Source: Edaphobacter aggregans DSM 19364 | GTDB taxonomy: Bacteria > Acidobacteriota > Terriglobia > Terriglobales > Acidobacteriaceae | Direction of reading: 5' to 3' | DNA length: 64,000 bases | Assembly: GCF_000745965.1 (NCBI RefSeq) | Contig: NZ_JQKI01000017.1 | Coordinates: 1 to 64,000, forward strand | Shown here: piece after piece, positions 44,023 through 53,400 of the stretch | Position numbering within the stretch: the stretch's first letter is position 1 | Layout of the letters: each line of letters starts with the position of its first letter | Notes under the pieces: generated by a model | Seen by the model: the letters and a program-made list of their open reading frames with translations, nothing else | The model's database searches: none | What the model was told of the DNA's origin: nothing | Position numbers and translations under genes: made by a program

Positions 44023-44703
44023 CTACATCTCCGTCCAGCGCCGCAGCAGGTTGTGATACACCCCCGTCAGCTCCACTCCCACGGGGCTTCCCGGCAGATC
44101 CAAGGCTAGCCTCTGGATTGACCGATCGAGATCGAACAGCATCGCTCGGTCTCCATCGCTGCGAATCATGCTCTGGATCCAGAAGAAACTCGACACTCGC
44201 GCCCCGCGCGTCACCGGCTCCACGCGATGCAGACTCGTCGCCGGATACAGCACCATGTGGCCCGCCGGCAGCTTCACGCTGTGCGCGCCATAGGTGTCCT
44301 CCACGATCAGCTCGCCGCCGTCGTACTCCTCAGGAGCCGTCAGAAACAGCGTCGCCGAAACATCCGTCCTGATCCTCTGCCCTGTCGTTACGAGTTGGCG
44401 AATCGCGGTGTCCACATGCGTGCCAAACTGACCGCCTCCCGCATAGCGATTGAACATCGGAGGAAACACCCGCAGAGGAAGCGCCGCCGACATAAACAGC
44501 GGCGACCGCGCCAGTCCACCCAGAACCACCTCGCCCAGCTCCGCCGCCAGCGGCGAGCCCTCCGGAAGCTGCTGATTGTCCTTCACCCTCTGCGCCTGAT
44601 AGCCGGCCGTCACCTTGCCGTCCACCCAGTCCGCGACGTCCAGCTTCGCGCGCATCTGCCTCACCTGCTCGGCAGTCAACACATCGGGAATCGTAATCAA
44701 CAT
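44023..44703 (-). CDS. piuC: PKHD-type Fe(II)/2-oxoglutarate hydroxylase (PiuC/YbiX)
   Basis: This 226-residue dioxygenase of the PiuC/YbiX family has the Fe(II) site as HVDTAI and SLHRVEPV, with the 2-oxoglutarate Arg in [11 protein letters not shown]. The N-terminal [12 protein letters not shown] and [14 protein letters not shown] blocks are typical. PiuC genes usually accompany iron-regulated TonB-dependent receptors; here the siderophore receptor gene lies 35 bases upstream on the same strand. It may modify a siderophore or related compound. Length equals that of the family. Confidence 0.93.
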
Positions 44704-44738: not shown

Positions 44739-47336
44739 CTAGAACTTGAAGTTCACCCCGAACAGCGCGCTCAGCCCCGCCCCCGGAATCAGGTGGCTCG
44801 GATGCGGCTGGTCAATATAAAAACGATTCGCCAGGTTGAAGATGTTCGCCTGCAGCTCGATCCGGTCCGTCACCGGCCGCGAGATCATCGCGTTGAAGAC
44901 CCAGTATCCCGGCACCTGCTTAATGCCCGTCGAAAGCACCTGGTAGCCCTTCTTCTGCGTCCCCGTCGCCGGATCGATATACGTCGTCAGCGGCCCGAAC
45001 GTCAGCGGCGTAAACGGCACCGTCGAGCTCGCCGTTCGCGCCGCAACATAGTTCGCGCCCAGCCCGGCCTTGATATGCGCCACAACATTCCGCGTCACAA
45101 ACGCATTGAACGTCTGCTTCGGAACATTCGCCAACGGGTATCCCACCGACGTCGGGAAGAACTTCGAGCTCAACACCTCGCTCTTCAGATACGCATATCC
45201 CAGCACCAGGTCCATGCCCTGCGGCAGCCGGCCTACGGCGCTCGCCTGCACGCCCTTTACACGCTGGTTTCCTGCCAGCACGATGTTGTTCGAGTTCGTC
45301 GGGTCCGTCTCGCGAGCATTCAGCTTCGTCGTCCGGAACCACGCGCCGTCCAGCAGCAGCCGGTCATTCAGTAGGCTGTACTTCGCGCCCACCTCGTACG
45401 TCTCGTTCTCCTCCGGAGGCAGCACGCTCGTCGACACGCTCAGACTCAACGACTCCGCCGAGGGGTTGAAGCTCGTCCCGTAGTCGAAGTAAACGCTGCC
45501 GTGCGCGTTCGGCTTATACACAAACGCCGCGCGATACGTCGGCTTGGTCACATCCTGCGAGGCCAGCGTCGCAGGAGTCGTCGTGTTCGGAACATACAGG
45601 CTGTACCGCGTGTCGAAGTAGTCCCACCGCACGCCGCCGCTCAGGTCGAACATGCGCCCCAGGTGTACCGTGTCGACAAAGTACAGCCCCACACTCTGCG
45701 ACTTCACATGCGTCACCGATGACACCGTTCCCGTCCCCGTGAAGGCATCGTGCGGATTCGGGTTCGCCAGGTTCGTCGGCGTCACATTCTTGTACGTCGT
45801 GCGCACAGGATTCGACGTCTCCTGCCCGCCCTCAACGCCGCCCACAAAATCGTTCCGCACGCCCAGCACCTTGAACCGTGCCGTCAGCTCTGTCTGGTCC
45901 CACAGGTCGCTCTCAACACTCTTGATTGCAATCTGATTGCGATTCACCGCAATCAGATCCGCCGGAGTCGCCGGCGTATACGTGCACGGCGCGCCCGTCA
46001 CCGAGCTCGTCGGCAGCGCGCTCACATACCTGCCCACCGGAATCGCCTGCGACGCATTCGAGCAGATCTGCGGCTCCGTAATCTGCGCCTTGCGCTGGTA
46101 GTTCGCCCAGCGTGCAATGCTGTGCAGCTGCAGATGCTCGTTGAAACTATGCGCCAGCCTCCCGGTCACCACATCCACATCCGCATGCAGATTGTTCGAG
46201 TCCGGAAACCCGAAGTACGCATGACGGTTCGCCGGCGCAAGCTTGTTGAACAGCCACGGCAGGCCGTAGTCCGGCGTATCGCTCTCCGTCACGTGGAAGT
46301 ACCCGATCGTTCCCGGCGTCGCAGAGTTCATCCCAAAGCTGATCGAAGGCGCAACGCCATAGTGCTTGTTCTCCGCATAAGGCCTGCCCGCAACCCCGCC
46401 GGCAACTCCCACCGCGTTCACACGAACAGCCGAGCCCGCAGCAAAGTCCTTCAGCGGCTCATTCACGTCCGCGGAGATCCTCCGCGTCGCGTCCGTCCCA
46501 AACTGCGTCTGCACATGAATGAACTTATCGGCAGCAGGAACCTTCGTGCTCTGGTTGATGATGCCTCCCGTCGATCCGCGCCCGAACTGCACGCCCGCCG
46601 GTCCCTCCAGCACCTCCACCTGCTCATAGTTGAAGCTGTCGCGGTAGTAGCTTCCGAAGTCGCGAATGCCGTCCAGAAAGATGTCGTTGCGCGCCGTAAA
46701 TCCGCGAATCGTCAGGTTGTCGCCCTGCGCGCCGGCCTCGCCCGCCGCCATGCTGATGCCGGGAACATTTCTCAGAGCATCGCGAAGCGTCGTGTTCTGC
46801 TGCTCGTGCAGCACAAACTGCGGAACAACCGCCACCGTCTGCGGAGTATCGATCAGCGGCTGCGTAAACTTGTTCATCGAGACCGTATCCGGCAGCGACG
46901 CCGTCACCTCCACCGACTCCGACCGCTTCAGCCCCACCACCATCGTCGACGAGCCCTGCACCGCATAGCTCAGCCCCGTGTCCTCCAGCAGAAGCCGCAT
47001 GCCCTCCTCCACCGTATGCAGCCCCGTCACGCCCTTCGTCTGAAACCCTGCCAGCGTTCCGCCCGGAAGCTCCACCCTCACCGTGAGCCCCGTCGCCTGC
47101 TCGTACGCCTTGATGCCATCCTCCAGCCCACCCGCTGCGATGTTGAAGCGCTTCACCGGAAGATTCGCCACCGGTCCGCCCGGCCCGGGAGAAACCTCGC
47201 TGCCCGGCTTCACCGCCGCCAGCGACTGCCGGCTCGACCCCATCACCGTATAAGCCGCCAGCGTCCCCACCGCCAGCCAGCTTCGTGATCCGGCAAATCG
47301 TCTCCGCAGGCTCTCCCGCCTCTGGTCCTTCTTCAT
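44739..47336 (-). CDS. TonB-dependent siderophore receptor with STN domain
   Basis: This 865-residue outer-membrane receptor starts at ATG 47336, behind GGGAGGAG. A long signal region is followed by an STN domain (about 60-125, FNIAAGGLEDGIKAYEQATG) that usually signals to an anti-sigma factor. The TonB plug (TPQTVAVVPQFVLHEQQN, NLTIRGFTARNDIFLDGIRD) and a 22-strand barrel to the C-terminal Phe (LFGVNFKF) complete it. Siderophore-receptor features such as GGIINQSTK are present. It forms an operon with piuC. The absence of a visible FecR/FecI pair beside it is noted. A Fur box was not recognised. Confidence 0.92.
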   Translation of the reverse strand: MKKDQRRESLRRRFAGSRSWLAVGTLAAYTVMGSSRQSLAAVKPGSEVSPGPGGPVANLPVKRFNIAAGGLEDGIKAYEQATGLTVRVELPGGTLAGFQTKGVTGLHTVEEGMRLLLEDTGLSYAVQGSSTMVVGLKRSESVEVTASLPDTVSMNKFTQPLIDTPQTVAVVPQFVLHEQQNTTLRDALRNVPGISMAAGEAGAQGDNLTIRGFTARNDIFLDGIRDFGSYYRDSFNYEQVEVLEGPAGVQFGRGSTGGIINQSTKVPAADKFIHVQTQFGTDATRRISADVNEPLKDFAAGSAVRVNAVGVAGGVAGRPYAENKHYGVAPSISFGMNSATPGTIGYFHVTESDTPDYGLPWLFNKLAPANRHAYFGFPDSNNLHADVDVVTGRLAHSFNEHLQLHSIARWANYQRKAQITEPQICSNASQAIPVGRYVSALPTSSVTGAPCTYTPATPADLIAVNRNQIAIKSVESDLWDQTELTARFKVLGVRNDFVGGVEGGQETSNPVRTTYKNVTPTNLANPNPHDAFTGTGTVSSVTHVKSQSVGLYFVDTVHLGRMFDLSGGVRWDYFDTRYSLYVPNTTTPATLASQDVTKPTYRAAFVYKPNAHGSVYFDYGTSFNPSAESLSLSVSTSVLPPEENETYEVGAKYSLLNDRLLLDGAWFRTTKLNARETDPTNSNNIVLAGNQRVKGVQASAVGRLPQGMDLVLGYAYLKSEVLSSKFFPTSVGYPLANVPKQTFNAFVTRNVVAHIKAGLGANYVAARTASSTVPFTPLTFGPLTTYIDPATGTQKKGYQVLSTGIKQVPGYWVFNAMISRPVTDRIELQANIFNLANRFYIDQPHPSHLIPGAGLSALFGVNFKF

Positions 47337-47404
47337 CGCCTCTTCTCCTCCCAAAGCACCGAAAAAAGCGCGCAATGAGGCATTGACCGCTCAAAGCCAG
47401 CCCC

Positions 47405-47427
47405 GCGGCGGCAGTTCAGGCCGCCGC
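47405..47427. repeat. GC-rich hairpin upstream of the siderophore receptor
   Basis: GCGGCGGC pairs perfectly with GCCGCCGC around AGTTCAG. It lies about 70 bases before the receptor ATG, in its likely leader or promoter, and could act as a structured 5' element. Confidence 0.55.
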
Positions 47428-47940
47428 AAGCACCAGCAAACCGTGATGTTAGGAATGGAGCGAGAACGATCGGCGCATTCGCTTTGAAACAGTTGAAGCG
47501 CGCCCTATAATCGCAGACAACTCTACCGTCCTAATGGACCGTAGACCCCAGATCCTCGCGGCCTCCGCCAAGAGATAAATCCGCGGGGGTCTGGCCTCTC
47601 TTCCACTCCAGAGCTCCTCGCGAACCGCGAAAGACCCGCCAGATCCTCGCGCAAAGCCCCCAAAATTCTTGTTAAATTGAATATAAGACAAGAGCAGTCC
47701 GAGATCAATCAAAATATGCGACAAATCCAGTCTGATATCGGATTTTGGTCGGTATTCGGACACATCAGGCCGTCACACTCCCTCACGCCTCCGTACCCAC
47801 CAGCCTTCACGCACTGGAGTCGCTAATGCGTTAGATACATAATTCGCTATCAAGTAAGTCGTTCATTCATCGAAAAGCTTTGACAATTTCCATAAATAAC
47901 CTTGCTTTCTTCCACTAACCATGTCACTCTAGTCAGCACG
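47428..47940. other. Intergenic region between the iron operon and the Rsr locus
   Basis: No gene is convincing here; a 104-codon minus-strand frame at 47449-47763 has no recognisable domain. The stretch becomes AT-rich from about 47830. TTGACA at 47880-47885 is a good -35 candidate for the RNA array and genes that follow, but no matching -10 is evident at 17 bases. Confidence 0.5.
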
Positions 47941-48071
47941 TAGGAGTTAGCCCGATGAAAGTAACATCGCACAACACGATGCGTAGGTCCCCGGAGACGA
48001 TTCAATTCGTCGCGGGTGATCGCCGGGCGCTCTATCCTACCTGGCTATAACTCCCAAGTTCGGCTCCTACG
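47941..48071 (+). ncRNA. Structured RNA candidate heading the Rsr locus
   Basis: The segment is closed by GTAGGAG (47941-47947) and CTCCTAC (48065-48071), or alternatively by GGAGTTAGCC against GGCTATAACTCC. Inside are CGATG-AAAGTAA-CATCG (47954-47970), GTAGG/CCTAC, CCCGG/CCGGG and a GACGA-TTCAAT-TCGTC hairpin, all nested without conflict. The loop complement GTTACTTT resembles the TTACTTC motif of the downstream units. It is a probable non-coding RNA of about 130 nt or the leader of the array. Confidence 0.55.
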
Positions 48072-48088
48072 TTGATCCGTATCTCAAC

Positions 48089-48165
48089 TTACTGAGTGGT
48101 GAAGAGCACAGTTACTTCGACTGTCATCGATCAAACCACTGTTCTCGCCCGTTCCCTCAGTAAGC
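48089..48165 (+). ncRNA. Y RNA-like candidate, unit 1
   Basis: A 77-nt segment is closed by the perfect nine-pair stem CTTACTGAG/CTCAGTAAG. Inside, TGGT/ACCA encloses the hairpin ACAGT-TACTTCG-ACTGT, and the strand after it is pyrimidine-rich. The AGTGGTGAAGA...AGTTACTTCGAC element is shared with units 2 to 4. Size and closed terminal stem suit a Ro-bound Y RNA. A strong separate hairpin CCGGCGC-CAACT-GCGCCGG follows at 48170-48188. Confidence 0.6.
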
Positions 48166-48219
48166 CCTCCGGCGCCAACTGCGCCGGCACGATGCGCCTG
48201 CCCGCGCAGCCGCGAATCT

Positions 48220-48307
48220 GCGCCTGCAATGGCAAAACCGCCAGTGGTGATAGAGCAGAGTTACTTCTTCTGCCCGAACGGCAGGGATAGAAACCCTGCA
48301 GGAGCAA
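48220..48307 (+). ncRNA. Y RNA-like candidate, unit 2
   Basis: An 88-nt segment is closed by TGCGCCTGCA/TGCAGGAGCA, nine of ten pairs. Inside are TGGC/GCCA, the shared element AGTGGTGATAGAGCAGAGTTAC with a GCAGA/TCTGC stem, and a T-arm-like hairpin GCAGGG-ATAGAAA-CCCTGC that partly competes with the closing stem. It belongs to the same family as units 1, 3 and 4. Confidence 0.55.
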
Positions 48308-48401
48308 AGACAGTTAAGGACGGAGTCGTCACCTCGACTTACAAGGTTCCTTGTTGCACTTACTCCGAAACTCTACTCGATAGTTCCCTGGCGAAGCATC
48401 G

Positions 48402-48466
48402 TTGTAACTCACAACTCGGCCGGTGGTGTAGATCGCAGTTACTTCGACGCGGCCATAAACCTCCAG
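48402..48466 (+). ncRNA. Y RNA-like candidate, unit 3
   Basis: GTTGT-AACTC-ACAAC is followed by the shared element GGTGGTGTAGATCGCAGTTA with loop TACTTCG and flanks CGCAGT/ACGCG. GGCCG/CGGCC or GGTGGT/ACCTCC encloses it. The closing stem is less clear than in the other units. It ends just before the hairpin CCAGC/GCTGG and the ribosome-binding site of the small protein gene. Confidence 0.5.
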
Positions 48467-48495
48467 CTCACTCGCTGGCAGAAAGGAGCCTCACC

Positions 48496-48795
48496 ATGAG
48501 CAGGCCATACATCAAGGGCGGAACCCCGGTCGGCTCCGAGTCGCGGTGCAGAACCTGCAGTAACGCACACATTATGCGCGGCTATCGCGCGTCAGAGATG
48601 GTCACCATCTGCAACGAGGTCAATCCGAACGTCGTCGTACCGTTCTCGATCTACGACTGCACCGGCTACTACGACAAGAACCGTCCCGACTGGGAGCAGA
48701 TGACGAAGCTGGCGATCGACGTCACCACCGCGCCGCTCAAGCCCGTCGGCTTCAAGGTCGGAGCCGGATTCCTCGCAGACGCCGATGAAGACTAA
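48496..48795 (+). CDS. Small Cys-containing protein in the Rsr locus
   Basis: This 99-residue protein starts at ATG 48496, seven bases after AAAGGAG. It contains CRTC at residues 18-21, a third Cys in VTICNEV and a fourth in YDCTGYYDKNRPDWEQM, so a zinc ribbon or knuckle is likely. The C-terminal part is hydrophobic with little charge. It lies between RNA units 3 and 4 and upstream of rsr on the same strand. No known family was recognised; a role in RNA handling with Rsr is inferred from position only. Confidence 0.8.
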   Translation: MSRPYIKGGTPVGSESRCRTCSNAHIMRGYRASEMVTICNEVNPNVVVPFSIYDCTGYYDKNRPDWEQMTKLAIDVTTAPLKPVGFKVGAGFLADADED

Positions 48796-48830
48796 CGCAT
48801 CGCTCGCCCTGAACGACCCCCTCAGGTCCG

Positions 48831-48867
48831 TCATTCTGAGCACAGCGAAGAATCTCAGTATTTCTTA
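48831..48867 (-). repeat. Short dispersed repeat, reverse copy
   Basis: GTCATTCTGAGCACAGCGAA followed by GAATCTCAGTATTTCTT is, on the minus strand, a relative of the element at 7944-7982 (GAT-CTTCGCT-GCTCAG-ATGAC order). It lies between the small protein gene and RNA unit 4 and may have been inserted there. Confidence 0.5.
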
Positions 48868-48930
48868 GGTTTGTGCCGACCCTCATCCCCATAGGTTCGC
48901 ACCAACCAAAGCTACTGACCAAATCCATTC

Positions 48931-49004
48931 GCCGGTGGCGAAGACAGCGGCTACTTCGACGGATGCCACGCAGGTTCGAATCCTGCCTTGAGCCTCACCG
49001 GCTC
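48931..49004 (+). ncRNA. Y RNA-like candidate, unit 4, with tRNA-like T-arm
   Basis: An acceptor-like seven-pair stem GCCGGTG/CACCGGC (48931-48937 with 48996-49002) encloses the shared element GGTGGCGAAGACAGCGGCTA with TACTTCGAC, a GTGGC/GCCAC stem, and a textbook T-arm GCAGG-TTCGAAT-CCTGC at 48970-48986. Nine extra bases separate the T-arm from the 3' strand, and there is no anticodon arm, so it is a tRNA mimic rather than a tRNA. An alternative hairpin GAGCC/GGCTC ends at 49004. It lies 63 bases upstream of rsr, as YrlA-type RNAs lie near rsr in other bacteria. Confidence 0.65.
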
Positions 49005-49066
49005 ATGGGAACCGCCGTCGACCATTCCCCGGCGAAAACCAAACGCACTTTGAAAGGAGGTGCGAG

Positions 49067-50383
49067 ATGAGACTGAACGTACTCAAGCTGAGCCTGCTGG
49101 CGCGCCCCCGCACCCACGAGGGAGCGCCCGCCGTACCCATCTCTCCGGAGGCCGCGCTGCGCCGCAGCGTGCTCGCCTGCATGCTCTGGGAGAACGAGTT
49201 CTACGAGTCCGGCGAGACCATCGCCGCGCGCATCCGGGCACTCGTCCCCCAGGTCGAACCCGCCGTCGTCGCCGCGCTCGCCGTTGAGGCCCGCACCGCC
49301 ATGAAGCTGCGTCACGCGCCGCTTCTGCTCGTGCGTGAGATGGCCCGCTACGCCGCGCACCGCGCTCTCGTCGCCGAGACGCTCGTGCGCGTCATCCAGC
49401 GCGCCGACGAACTCGCCGAGTTCGTCGCCATCTACTGGGCCGACGGTCGCACGCCGCTCGCCGCATCGGTGAAGAAGGGCCTCGCCGCCGCCTTCACCGG
49501 CTTCGACGAGTACGCGCTCGCGAAGTACGACCGCGCCGGAGCAGTGCGTCTGCGCGACGTCCTCTTCCTCTCACACGCGCGTCCCCGCGACGCCGCGCAG
49601 GCGGAGTTGTGGAAGCGTCTCGCAGCCGGAGAGCTGCGCACTCCCGACACCTGGGAGGTCGCGCTCTCCTCGGGTGGAGACAAGCGTGCGCACTGGGAGC
49701 GGTTGCTCATCGAAGGACGCCTCGGCGCCCTCGCCCTCCTGCGCAACCTTCGCAACATGAAGGACGCCGGAGTCAGCGAGGACTACATCGCCGCTGCGCT
49801 CGAGACGATGCGCACCGACCGCGTGCTCCCGTTTCGCTTCCTCGCCGCGGCGCGTCACGCTCCCGAGTGGGAGCCGAGCCTCGAACGCGCAATGTTCCGC
49901 TCGCTCGAGGAAGCACCTCGGCTTGTCGGACGAACCGTCCTGCTCGTCGACGTCTCCGGAAGCATGGTCGCGCCGCTCTCGGCTCGCTCGACGATGCTGC
50001 GCACCGACGCGGCCTATGGCCTAGCAGTGCTGCTCAGCGAGGTCGCAGAGAAGGTCAGCATCTACACCTTCTCCAACACCTGCGTCGCGATTCCGCCTCG
50101 CCGCGGATTCGCCCTGCGCAACGCGATGGAGCTCTCGCAGCGCCACAGCGGAACCATGCTTGGCGCCGCGCTCGACTCCATCCGCGAGCCGTACGACCGC
50201 ATCATCGTCATCTCTGATGAGCAGTCGCACGACCGTGTCGGAGCGCCCCGCGGACGCGGCTACATGATCAACGTAGCCAGCGCCCGCAACGGAGTCGGCT
50301 ACGGCCCGTGGACCCACATCGACGGCTTCAGCGAGGCCGTCATCGACTACATCCGCGAGTTCGAGCGAACTAGCCTCAACTAG
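49067..50383 (+). CDS. rsr: Ro60 orthologue Rsr (TROVE and vWA domains)
   Basis: This 438-residue protein has an N-terminal helical TROVE ring domain (SVLACMLWENEFYESGETIAARIRALVP, MKLRHAPLLLVREMAR, LRNLRNMKDAGVSEDYI, RVLPFRFLAAARHAPEWE) and a C-terminal von Willebrand A domain. The latter carries the MIDAS DVSGSM from residue 295, HSGTMLGAAL, and VISDEQSHD. Rsr rings bind Y RNAs and misfolded RNAs and help exonucleases such as PNPase. Here it follows a set of Y RNA-like candidates. AAAGGAGG lies six bases before the ATG. No rtcB or rtcA is adjacent. Confidence 0.95.
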   Translation: MRLNVLKLSLLARPRTHEGAPAVPISPEAALRRSVLACMLWENEFYESGETIAARIRALVPQVEPAVVAALAVEARTAMKLRHAPLLLVREMARYAAHRALVAETLVRVIQRADELAEFVAIYWADGRTPLAASVKKGLAAAFTGFDEYALAKYDRAGAVRLRDVLFLSHARPRDAAQAELWKRLAAGELRTPDTWEVALSSGGDKRAHWERLLIEGRLGALALLRNLRNMKDAGVSEDYIAAALETMRTDRVLPFRFLAAARHAPEWEPSLERAMFRSLEEAPRLVGRTVLLVDVSGSMVAPLSARSTMLRTDAAYGLAVLLSEVAEKVSIYTFSNTCVAIPPRRGFALRNAMELSQRHSGTMLGAALDSIREPYDRIIVISDEQSHDRVGAPRGRGYMINVASARNGVGYGPWTHIDGFSEAVIDYIREFERTSLN

Positions 50384-50393
50384 CAAAACAAAA

Positions 50394-50420
50394 CGGCGGA
50401 GAGCATCAAGCTCTCCGCCG
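50394..50420 (-). terminator. Intrinsic terminator of the large TonB receptor gene
   Basis: CGGCGGAGAGC pairs over eleven bases with GCTCTCCGCCG around ATCAA. On the minus strand it is followed by GTTTTGTTTTG. On the plus strand, where rsr ends, a T-run is missing but the stem may still halt transcription. Confidence 0.88.
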
Positions 50421-50447
50421 CTCCTCTAGCAAGAGGAATCAACCAAG

Positions 50448-53400
50448 TCAGAAATTCAGCTTCAATTGGAACTCCGTCGTGCGTGGAGCCCCTGACGAGA
50501 ACGTTCCCGAACCACGCTGCGTGCGCAAACCATTCTGCACAGCATCATTGTTCGGTCCGTTCAGGTAATTCTCCGTCGTCCCTGGACCGCTGCCCTGCGC
50601 CAGCGTACCGGTCAACCGGCTAAAGTTGGCCATGTTGAACACGTTGTACATCGCCACCGTCGGAACCAGGCTCACACCCTCGCGGATGCGGCTCAGCTTG
50701 ATCGGGTACGACAGTTGCGCGTCGAACGAGCGGAACGCCGGGTTGCTGATCGGGTTGCGCGGAGCGTCGGCAATCGGCTGCTGCACCGCGTTCAGCGCCT
50801 TCAGCTGCGCCGGAGTCATCAGGCCCGCGTTCACCAGAGCCTGACCGGCCGGCGTCAGCTGACCCGCGTGCGTCGAGTTGTAGTTGCCGATCAGCTTCTC
50901 CAGACCCGCGCCCTTCACGTCGTGCATGTAAGCACCCGGATTCGTTCCCGGAATCAGGTCGCCCGTCGTACCGTCACCCGTCACGTCCGTGCGGAAGATC
51001 TCGCCCGGAGCGCCCGACGTGTTGTCCAGCGTCAGCGACGTCGCGCCAGCCGAGTAGAAGTGACCCTGCATGCCAACGTTCAGACCATACTTCACCGCAA
51101 GCGTGCCGCCGAAGCTGATCTGGTTCGAGTGGTCAAGCTCCGACCGCCCCATGTACTGGTTCGGATTGTCGTAGTCATACGGATACGAGCTGAAGAACTG
51201 GTCGCCCGAGCTCGAGCCGCTGATCGGGTTCACGGCCTGCGACAGCGAGTACGAAATCTGGAACACCGAGCTGGTGACGCCCGGCATAGGATGCGTGACC
51301 TGCTGCTTCAGCACAATCTGCAGAGCGTCGTACGCCGAGCGCCCTACCGGAAGGATGAACAGGCCTGTACCCACGTTCGGGTTCGCTCCGCCAAACGCAA
51401 CCTGCGGAACACCGGCGTTTGAAGCGGAGTAGCCGCCCGTGACCTGGTTCAGCGAATCCAGCCCGTTGCCCGAGAAGTCGTCAATCACAGCGCCTTTGTT
51501 GATCGCGCAATTGATCGCCGCAGTCGTAAAGCCGCCCGAGCAGCCAAACTGAGCCGTCGTCGCGGCAATCGCAGACTGCGCCGCCGTCTGGTTCAGGAAC
51601 CGCGCCGCGCCGACGTGGTTCACGTCGATCAGCATCGGAACCTTCAGCGTTGCATTGTGCACATAGTCCACGCTCAGGATCGTTCCACGCGCAATCTCAC
51701 GCTGGATACCGCCGTTGATCTGGATCGAGTACGGGCTGACAAACGGAGCGCCGTAGATGCCGTTGGCATACAGGCCGCCGCCGCTCGAACCGATGTAAGC
51801 GGGATTCGGTCCACCCGTCTGCGAAGCCGCCTGGTACATCGCCTTCAGCTTCGCAATCTGCGGAGCTGCCTGCGCAATCGGCTGATTGCAGATCGTCGAC
51901 AGCGAGACGCCATCCACCGAGTTGATGTTGGTTCCGTCCGGCAGGGTAATCACATTGATGCCGCCGCACACGCGCACGTCGTTCCAGTAGTTGCCGTTCA
52001 CGTTCACCACTGAGCTGCGAGCGTTCGACGAATTGTTGAACACATCGCTCTCGTAGAAGATGCCCATGCCGCCGCGGATCGAAGTCTTGTGATCCCCGGG
52101 GCTGAACACGAATCCAGCCTGTGGTCCAAAGTTCGCCCACGGCTGGTGCGTCTTCTTGCCCAGACCCTGCTGGAACTGATCGAACAGAGGCGTGTTGCCC
52201 GTGCAACCCGTGAACTGCATCGAAGGATCGACGCTCGAGCACAACGGTGTCGAAAGGTCCTGGTTCGCACGGTCGGTGTCCACGCTCCAGCGCACGCCGG
52301 CGGTCAGCGTCAGATACGACGTAGCCTTCCACGTATCGGCGATGTAGGCGCCCGAACGCCAGTCTTGCTGGCCGCCGCCCTTCAGGCCGAAGCCCGACCT
52401 CTCGCTAAAGAACCCGTTGCCGTTGCCCAGCGTAAAGTAGCGAGCCGAATAACCATTGATCGGATCGCCCGCGCAAGGACCCGCACCGGTAACGCCGCCG
52501 CAGTTCGCCAGCTGATTCGCCGAGCTGAATCGCGTGAACAGCGATGCTCCGTAGAACTCCGCAAAGCCGCCACCCAGAATCCGGTTCATGCTCGCGCCGA
52601 ACTTCAGCGTGTGCGTGCCCTTCGTCCACGTGCCGTCATAGCGAAGCTGCTTGTCCGACTGGAACGTTCCCTGCGGTGCAAGGTAGTTCGGGCCGGCATA
52701 GAAGTTGTCCACCGTGTCATACAGCGTCACGCCGCCGCCAACAGTCGGAAGCGGGTTGTAGATCGAAGTCAGCCCGCCCGTTCCGTCGCCGAGAATGTTG
52801 TGGAACTTCTCATAGCCGCCGCGGATCGAGTGCGTGAACCGGCCGGTGACAAAGTCAGCGCCGCCTACGATCGCAGGCGTGTTGTTGCGCGACTTGAACA
52901 GCGAATAAAGCTGCGAGTAGTTCGAGGTGTCGGCATTCACGTTGTAAACGCCGCGAACGAAGTAGTGAACGCCCTTGGGTCCGTTGTAATCCAGGCGGGC
53001 CGTCGAGTACGTATCGCGGAACGGCGCCGGAGTGAACGGATGCTGGGTCGTGATCGAGGAGAAGATCGGGCTGGTCGTCGCCGAGGCCTGCTCATCCTGC
53101 TTCACGCGCTCCACCGCGCCGAAGAAGAACAGCTTGTCCTTGATGATCGGTCCGCCCACGCTGCCGCCGAAGTTATTGCGCTGGAACGGCGCATCGAAGC
53201 CGTTCGTCGTCCGCGCAAAGCCCACGCTGTGATCCTGAAAGTTATAGAAGAGTTGTCCGTGAATGCCGTTCGTGCCCGAACGCGTCGCCATCAGAACCTG
53301 CCCGGTCGAAGTCACCTCGCCCGAGACGTCCTGCGTCGAGCGGTTCAGCTGGAACTCGTCCACTGCCCCCACCGGAATGTTGAAGAGTGTCGTGCCGACA

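What the first reader, a model, noticed from the sequence alone, without database searches (positions are those of the whole stretch)
47941..50383. Ro60/Rsr locus with an array of Y RNA-like RNAs and an unknown small protein
The sequence shows a clear TROVE-vWA gene, four related tRNA-sized RNA candidates upstream, a further structured RNA at the head, and a small Cys-rich protein gene embedded in the array. Bacterial Rsr is known to work with one or two Y RNAs (YrlA being tRNA-like), usually near rtcBA. A row of four diverged copies without RtcB, plus a new protein partner, looks like an undescribed variant. That the RNAs bind Rsr is inference.
Basis: partly seen in the sequence, partly recalled or inferred. 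Interest (0 to 1): 0.9.

Follow-up and report, generated by a model that had tools for sequence, protein, structure and literature searches.

The report
Y RNAs carrying anticodon-bearing tRNA mimics
In a soil acidobacterium a row of Y RNA-like units lies upstream of the gene for the predicted ring protein Rsr, and in related bacteria the same kind of row carries rearranged tRNAs with genuine anticodon loops, which likely lets the RNAs serve as bait for enzymes that read or cut tRNA anticodons.

Summary
Upstream of a TROVE-vWA (Rsr) gene lie four copies of a bipartite Y RNA-like motif: three close with an end stem, one is truncated. They are the only matches in the window (0.05 expected). Arrays of two to six units recur in acidobacteria and Alphaproteobacteria; viral contigs carry Rsr kin and further units. 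In relatives the full-length class is a circularly permuted tRNA opened in the anticodon stem, with strong covariation. Turned back in silico, 38 of 72 units are called tRNAs by ARAGORN, with 20 anticodons; rotations and shuffles give none. 24 of 48 testable loops equal a real anticodon loop of the window's genome (0.34 expected). Rfam's YrlA consensus has no anticodon arm. The 'structured RNA at the head' encloses a conserved ~30-codon leader ORF whose Shine-Dalgarno pairs past its stop. The four-Cys protein is an unnamed family kept under selection in congeners without Rsr and Y units, so it is not simply an Rsr partner. The genome lacks RtcB. Bait for anticodon-reading enzymes is my preferred, untested mechanism. 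The window copy is partly degenerate: only unit 1 keeps an anticodon-like hairpin, with a 6-nt loop.

The parts
47901..47946 (+). candidate promoter and 5' end: CTTGC element, then a weakly kept TATGGCAAAGT-like element, then Shine-Dalgarno GTAGGAG (47940-47946)
   Evidence: upstream of 39 heads CTTGC occurs in 29 and TGGCA in 25; promoter function inferred
47955..48050 (+). leader ORF of 31 codons, MKVTSHNTMRRSPETIQFVAGDRRALYPTWL
   Evidence: 36 of 39 heads have an ORF of 28-37 codons from the equivalent ATG (25, 27 and 27 codons in the other three); 11% each expected for shuffled sequence; weak coding signal
48064..48072 (+). anti-Shine-Dalgarno CTCCTACGT, pairs with the Shine-Dalgarno at the 5' end
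   Evidence: 8-9 of 9 possible pairs in 36 of 39 heads; shuffled mean 6.9, 18% of shuffles reach 8 or more; pairing forms in the window fold
48088..48164 (+). Y RNA-like unit 1 (minimal class); hairpin TCGA-CTGTCA-TCGA at 48117-48130 resembles the tRNA-Asp anticodon arm (6-nt loop here; CTGTCAC, the exact Asp loop, in L042 and L089)
   Evidence: closing stem of 9 bp, fold z -3.87, loops in relatives
48239..48393 (+). Y RNA-like unit 2 (long class, inner structure of unknown kinship)
   Evidence: motif and 6-bp closing stem, fold z -1.75; 14 long-class units among 249
48416..48480 (+). unit 3: 5' part of a Y RNA-like unit, 3' half lost; by position the permuted-tRNA unit of relatives
   Evidence: motif present, no genuine closing stem, fold z -0.37
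48496..48795 (+). small protein, 99 aa, four invariant Cys (C18, C21, C39, C55), acidic tail
   Evidence: 36 of 200 family genomes, the window's own included; 953 homologues, none of the 120 listed with a Pfam domain; no Pfam or NCBIfam match
48928..49036 (+). Y RNA-like unit 4: end stem, T-arm GCAGG-TTCGAAT-CCTGC (48970-48986) and closed acceptor-like hairpin; D-arm and anticodon arm not kept
   Evidence: 8-bp closing stem, centroid fold; 14 post-small-gene or similar units of relatives keep a fuller tRNA set
49067..50383 (+). rsr: TROVE-vWA (Ro60-like) protein, 438 aa, DVSGSM motif of a vWA MIDAS
   Evidence: PF05731; 66-78% identity to 33 family relatives with the motif invariant

Best explanation
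The locus is a row of three closed and one truncated Y RNA-like units with a 31-codon leader ORF, a four-cysteine small-protein gene and an rsr gene; each unit would be bound by the predicted ring protein Rsr through the shared end stem and, because the full-length units of relatives are circularly permuted tRNAs with genuine anticodon loops, the row likely presents a set of tRNA baits to enzymes that read, cut or mend tRNA anticodons. Shown by calls: the array, its conserved order in non-alphaproteobacterial loci, the covarying folds, the permutation, the anticodon loops in relatives, the leader ORF, the absence of RtcB from this genome. Inferred: transcription as one RNA from the promoter before the head, processing into separate Y RNAs, Rsr binding, and the bait function. 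The acceptor stem is closed by a short loop, so the mimics could not be charged with an amino acid but would still show a tRNA elbow and an anticodon loop. Under this view a cut bait spares a real tRNA and the ring would carry the cut RNA or the captured enzyme to decay or repair (RtcB in the relatives that keep it). Translation of the leader, whose Shine-Dalgarno is predicted to be sequestered by pairing just past its stop, would tune expression to the state of translation.
For: Covariation: permuted class, 36 sequences, 95.5% of cells paired, 169 two-sided changes against 41.8 shuffled; partner slides give 34-45%. The anticodon stem is made of two separated segments (inner helix 80.9%, outer 94.4% paired). 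Loop length: in 33 of 77 permuted-class units exactly 7 nt follow the TACTTC-linked stem; each other length from 4 to 12 occurs 0-2 times. 48 of 249 units have a 7-nt loop and an outer pair: U33 in 43, purine 37 in 45, exact match to one of 44 loops from the window genome's tRNA genes in 24; shuffles mean 0.34 (max 5 in 5000 trials), with positions 33 and 37 fixed mean 2.65 (max 9); non-alphaproteobacterial units 18 of 35, alphaproteobacterial 6 of 13. Unpermuted in a script, 38 of 72 units are called tRNA with 20 anticodons, 0 of 72 in each of 10 random rotations and 10 shuffles. Second data set, viral contigs: U33 20 of 22, purine 37 20 of 22, 6 exact matches, 0.14 expected, 0.80 with 33 and 37 fixed. 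The tRNA body does not follow the anticodon (2 of 27 with loops masked), so loops differ on a common scaffold while staying valid anticodon loops. A bacterial Y RNA was already suggested as competitive inhibitor of an anticodon nuclease in Salmonella (PMC7790460, passages).
Against: No transcript, binding or nuclease data. In the window itself unit 3 is truncated, unit 4 has lost the D-arm, and only unit 1 keeps an anticodon-like hairpin, with a 6-nt loop. By the strict test 44 of 77 permuted-class units lack the 7-nt loop and 36 of these show no such stem-loop of 4-12 nt at all; 34 of 72 rotated units are not called tRNAs and 13 of 72 are called even as they stand. In viral units loops of 9 and 11 nt also occur (11 and 9 times against 24). 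The 14 long-class units showed no 7-nt loop. The sequences are related and no tree correction was made. Salmonella YrlA was not cut by the SOS-induced nuclease (PMC7790460). I did not search these genomes for anticodon nucleases.
Confidence: 0.45

Rival explanations
1. Adaptor view: the units are ordinary Y RNAs whose tRNA-like domains tether Rsr to PNPase and to tRNA-modifying enzymes, and the array offers several tethers; the anticodon arm is only a structural stem.
For: Known role of bacterial Y RNA as Rsr-PNPase tether and of YrlA as DusA/TruB substrate (PMC8394870, passages; PMC7790460, passages). Minimal and long units have no tRNA body.
Against: A merely structural stem need not keep 7 nt, U33, purine 37 and exact real anticodon loops; the Rfam YrlA consensus does without the arm.
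Confidence: 0.3
2. Relic view: the units are captured and decaying tRNA genes beside rsr; anticodons reflect the captured tRNAs and have no present role.
For: Window units 3 and 4 are degenerate; three congeners lack rsr and units.
Against: The aligned full-length units share one permuted register and the same end motifs, with many compensatory changes; body and anticodon mostly do not match the same isoacceptor (8 of 27, 2 of 27 with loops masked); the minimal unit comes first in 23 of 24 non-alphaproteobacterial loci that have one plus another unit.
Confidence: 0.1
3. Modification-trap view: the anticodon loops bind tRNA-modifying enzymes such as tRNA-guanine transglycosylase (its taste for GUN anticodons is recalled), since GUN anticodons are over-represented.
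For: 17 of 43 bacterial U33 loops are GUN, against 4 of 44 real loops.
Against: Only 1 of 20 viral loops is GUN; the counts are not corrected for relatedness; many other anticodons occur.
Confidence: 0.1

Closest known systems
YrlA-type bacterial Y RNA (Rfam RF02553; Salmonella structure 6CU1)
   Same: Ends pair to form a basal stem; T-arm, closed acceptor and D-arm follow in permuted order; CUUGU near the 3' end. 6CU1 superposes on tRNA with circular permutation (PMC11472068, passages).
   Different: RF02553 consensus has no anticodon arm and a review names only D, T and acceptor arms (PMC8394870, passages). Here a 5-bp anticodon stem with genuine 7-nt loop is present in part of the units, a second register opens the tRNA in the D-loop, and minimal, T-arm and long classes stand in one array. 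The window has no Rfam YrlA match.
Salmonella rsr-yrlBA-rtcBA RNA repair operon
   Same: rsr with Y RNA genes; in some relatives of the window with rtcB
   Different: Two Y RNAs there (PMC7790460, passages), up to six closed units here; no rtcB in the window genome; leader ORF and four-Cys protein added.
Permuted tRNA genes of algae and archaea (recalled, no call)
   Same: 3' half of the tRNA precedes the 5' half
   Different: Here opened in the anticodon stem or D-loop, with the acceptor closed by a short loop, so not a precursor of a chargeable tRNA.
Phage-encoded tRNAs that counter host anticodon nucleases (PMC10264068, passages)
   Same: tRNA-shaped RNAs with many anticodons carried by mobile genomes
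   Different: Those are proposed to be nuclease-insensitive working tRNAs; these could not be charged.

Membership tests
Rsr / Ro60 (TROVE-vWA) | TROVE domain | tested here: met
   PF05731 66.4 bits, cut-off 23
Rsr / Ro60 (TROVE-vWA) | vWA domain with MIDAS | tested here: met
   DVSGSM invariant in 34 sequences; but PF25045 and PF13519 score below their cut-offs
Rsr / Ro60 (TROVE-vWA) | binds Y RNA | not testable with these tools
   needs a pull-down
YrlA RNA (RF02553) | reaches Rfam gathering score | tested here: not met
   no match in window 46000-52000 (E up to 1) or genome; none at gathering score in 12 and 13 relatives' loci; 1 of 297 phylum genomes over cut-off, 61 at E 0.001 or better, a level also reached in 6 of 14 control genomes
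YrlA RNA (RF02553) | 5'/3' end stem with T-arm, closed acceptor, D-arm order | tested here: inconclusive
   met in the permuted class of relatives; window unit 4 keeps only end stem, T-arm and acceptor
RNA repair operon (rtcBA) | RtcB present | tested here: not met
   0 PF01139 matches in own genome
Functional tRNA | open acceptor stem that can end in CCA | tested here: not met
   acceptor strands joined by a loop
Functional tRNA | anticodon arm with 7-nt loop, U33, purine 37 | tested here: inconclusive
   met in a part of the units of relatives; not in the window's units

The most novel reading that the evidence does not exclude
Rsr arrays are a bait library: one RNA-binding ring displays interchangeable, unchargeable permuted tRNAs whose anticodon loops are swapped in evolution to match the tRNAs that nucleases attack, a decoy defence against tRNA-cutting toxins used by bacteria and by their phages.
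Probability: 0.35. Interest if true: 0.95.

Novelty: new variant of a known kind. Interest (0 to 1): 0.84.

Why it matters
What bacterial Y RNAs and Rsr are for is largely open; the one detailed case in the papers I saw is Deinococcus (PMC7790460). Finding that many Y RNA-like units hold a complete tRNA body, anticodon loop included, in a permuted form gives a direct handle: the anticodons name candidate partners (nucleases, modification or repair enzymes) and predict which. It also links Rsr to the tRNA-damage theme of the rtcBA operon and to phage-host conflict over tRNAs, and suggests that Rfam's YrlA model misses most of this group.

Tried and rejected
Rfam on the window and relatives: no Y RNA family at gathering score. 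Structure of the small protein: two AlphaFold2 runs, mean pLDDT 62.5 and 59.9, too weak to search; no fold search was made. Solved-structure search with it: chance-level only. Idea that captured tRNAs keep their isoacceptor body: not supported, 8 of 27 best matches agree with the anticodon and 2 of 27 with loops masked. Idea that the head is a further Y RNA: not supported, it lacks the motif and holds an ORF. Idea that the small protein depends on Rsr: not supported, omega 0.17-0.22 among three congeners without rsr. First head test used a faulty pattern that caught 7 heads; redone. First fold of the head left out its Shine-Dalgarno; redone. A note put the opening of the permuted class in the anticodon loop; the pair counts put it inside the 5' strand of the anticodon stem. 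Post-small-gene units were first read as D-loop-opened throughout; L099 instead has a contiguous D-arm, so that register rests on the 14 aligned sequences only. Papers: PMC6281776 is not held; the 2014 YrlA survey and the 2018 review cited in PMC8394870 were not read. PMC11555353 and PMC12409363 were seen in search listings only.
Full report
What is in the window. Upstream of a TROVE-vWA gene (49067-50383) a bipartite motif, GTGGYG then TACTTC, occurs four times on one strand (48096, 48244, 48423, 48935) and nowhere else in the 64 kb (0.05 expected). A fixed-spacing form of the pattern, which does not match the window copies, had one match in the whole genome, no more than its reversed control. 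Three copies close by pairing of their ends (9, 6 and 8 bp); the third copy lacks its 3' half. Neither Pfam nor NCBIfam names the small gene at 48496-48795. ARAGORN finds no tRNA in the array and Rfam nothing up to E 1 in 46000-52000. RtcB has no match in the genome; the assembly is 8.2 Mb with 7.2% estimated contamination.

Conservation. Of 200 genomes of the family, 36 have the small protein and 47 a TROVE match, fragments included. In 29 of 35 fetched small-protein loci a TROVE match lies within the fetched stretch, in one of them only fragments (L072); in one more genome (G056) it lies about 6.5 kb away. A scan of named genomes found 222 relatives, of which the best 80 are kept, among them Granulicella, Edaphobacter, Terracidiphilus, Bryocella, Bradyrhizobium and Hyphomonadaceae. 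After removal of identical copies 249 closed units remain (the spurious closure of window unit 3 among them) in 89 loci, 24 of these alphaproteobacterial: one unit in 10, two in 31, three in 22, four in 21, five in 3, six in 2. Classes assigned by a simple script: permuted 77, T-arm 79, minimal 33, long 14, other 46. The minimal unit comes first in 23 of 24 non-alphaproteobacterial loci that have one and another unit.

Permuted tRNAs. From 46 listed non-alphaproteobacterial permuted-class units of 115-150 nt (of 49) I aligned 36, leaving out 10, several of them of the second register below. The order is end stem, inner stem, TACTTC, anticodon arm, variable loop, T-arm, acceptor closed by a loop, D-arm, inner stem, end stem. 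Thirty pairs, anticodon stem included, give 95.5% paired cells and 169 two-sided changes (shuffled 41.8); sliding the partners by 1-3 columns gives 34-45%. The outer two anticodon-stem pairs join bases after the D-arm with bases before the variable loop, so the break lies inside the 5' strand of the anticodon stem. A second set of 14 units, picked by a motif and by eye, has the D-stem split around the rest (88.5% paired, 59 two-sided changes against 19.1); its anticodon arm is mostly capped by a short loop. Both sets were chosen for T- and D-arm signatures, so covariation, not the presence of the arms, is the test.

Anticodon loops. In the permuted class 33 of 77 units have exactly seven bases closed by three Watson-Crick pairs next to TACTTC; each other length from 4 to 12 occurs 0 to 2 times and 36 of 77 have none. 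Over all classes 51 units have a 7-nt loop, and 48 of these, from 41 loci, also have an outer pair. Of the 48, 43 have U33, 45 a purine at 37 and 24 equal one of 44 different loops of the window genome's tRNA genes; shuffled loops give 0.34 on average and at most 5 in 5000 trials. Alphaproteobacterial units were scored against the same acidobacterial loops (6 of 13; the rest 18 of 35). Exact matches: Asn 8, Met 3, Asp 3, Ser 3, Ile 2 and one each of Tyr, Pro, Val, Phe and Lys. When 72 units with T-arm before D-arm were turned back in a script, ARAGORN called 38 tRNAs with 20 anticodons, and none in 10 sets of random rotations or 10 sets of shuffles; 13 were called without turning. The bodies mostly do not match the isoacceptor named by the loop (8 of 27; 2 of 27 with loops masked). 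Related sequences are not independent, and no tree correction was made.

Viral contigs. 296 stretches of IMG/VR encode a TROVE relative (80 kept), and a motif scan gave 71 stretches. In 150 viral loci, some overlapping, I found 141 closed units, in 71 loci; 24 have 7-nt loops, against 11 with nine and 9 with eleven. Of 22 with an outer pair, 20 have U33 and 20 a purine 37; 6 match an own-genome loop, 0.14 expected (0.80 with 33 and 37 fixed). I did not check whether each contig is a phage.

Head and small protein. The 5' element is a leader: in 39 heads the ORF after GCGTAGGAG has 25-36 codons, 36 of them in 28-37 (11% each by chance). The Shine-Dalgarno can pair with a stretch usually 13-16 bases past the stop (8 or 9 of 9 pairs in 36 of 39; shuffled mean 6.9, 18% of shuffles reach 8); in the window this pairing forms in the predicted fold (z -2.7). 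The codon signal is weak (0.63 in frame, 0.78 and 1.07 out of frame), so a regulatory leader is likelier than a working peptide. Three congeners keep head and small gene without Y units or rsr and their small genes are under selection (omega 0.17-0.22); these genomes also lack RtcB. In L054 the small gene is followed by rtcB.

Reading. The Ro-binding role of the end stem rests on analogy with known Y RNAs. Known YrlA resembles the D, T and acceptor arms (PMC8394870, passages), and the RF02553 consensus has no anticodon arm, though the one acidobacterial member over its cut-off (L215) carries an extra hairpin with an Ile-type loop there. I saw no description of anticodon-bearing Y RNAs in eight searches of the paper library, which lacks most subscription papers, among them the 2014 YrlA survey. 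I commit to the bait view at 0.45: anticodon loops are what nucleases, modification and repair enzymes read; they vary while staying valid; and the locus family sits with tRNA repair. The window is a worn copy of the system, best studied in relatives.

Noticed in passing
L054 4560-6151: Small four-Cys gene followed directly by rtcB, without rsr in the fetched stretch; head ORF upstream.
   Followed up: partly
L215 61-1632: Two YrlA-type RNAs directly after a run of tRNA genes (six RF00005 matches listed); one has an Ile-type anticodon hairpin inserted.
   Followed up: partly
viral loci L223-L372: TROVE (Rsr) relatives on many IMG/VR contigs; Y units found in 71 of 150 viral loci.
   Followed up: partly
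window 48239-48393 and kin: Long-class unit with a recurring inner element (GGGACGGGGGCGTAGTCCCGAA..CACAAGG-like in relatives) of unknown kinship.
   Followed up: no
window 44436-44525: ARAGORN reports tRNA-Ile(tat) on the minus strand inside an open reading frame; probably spurious.
   Followed up: no
bacterial Y unit loops: GUN anticodons over-represented (17 of 43) but not in viral units (1 of 20).
   Followed up: partly
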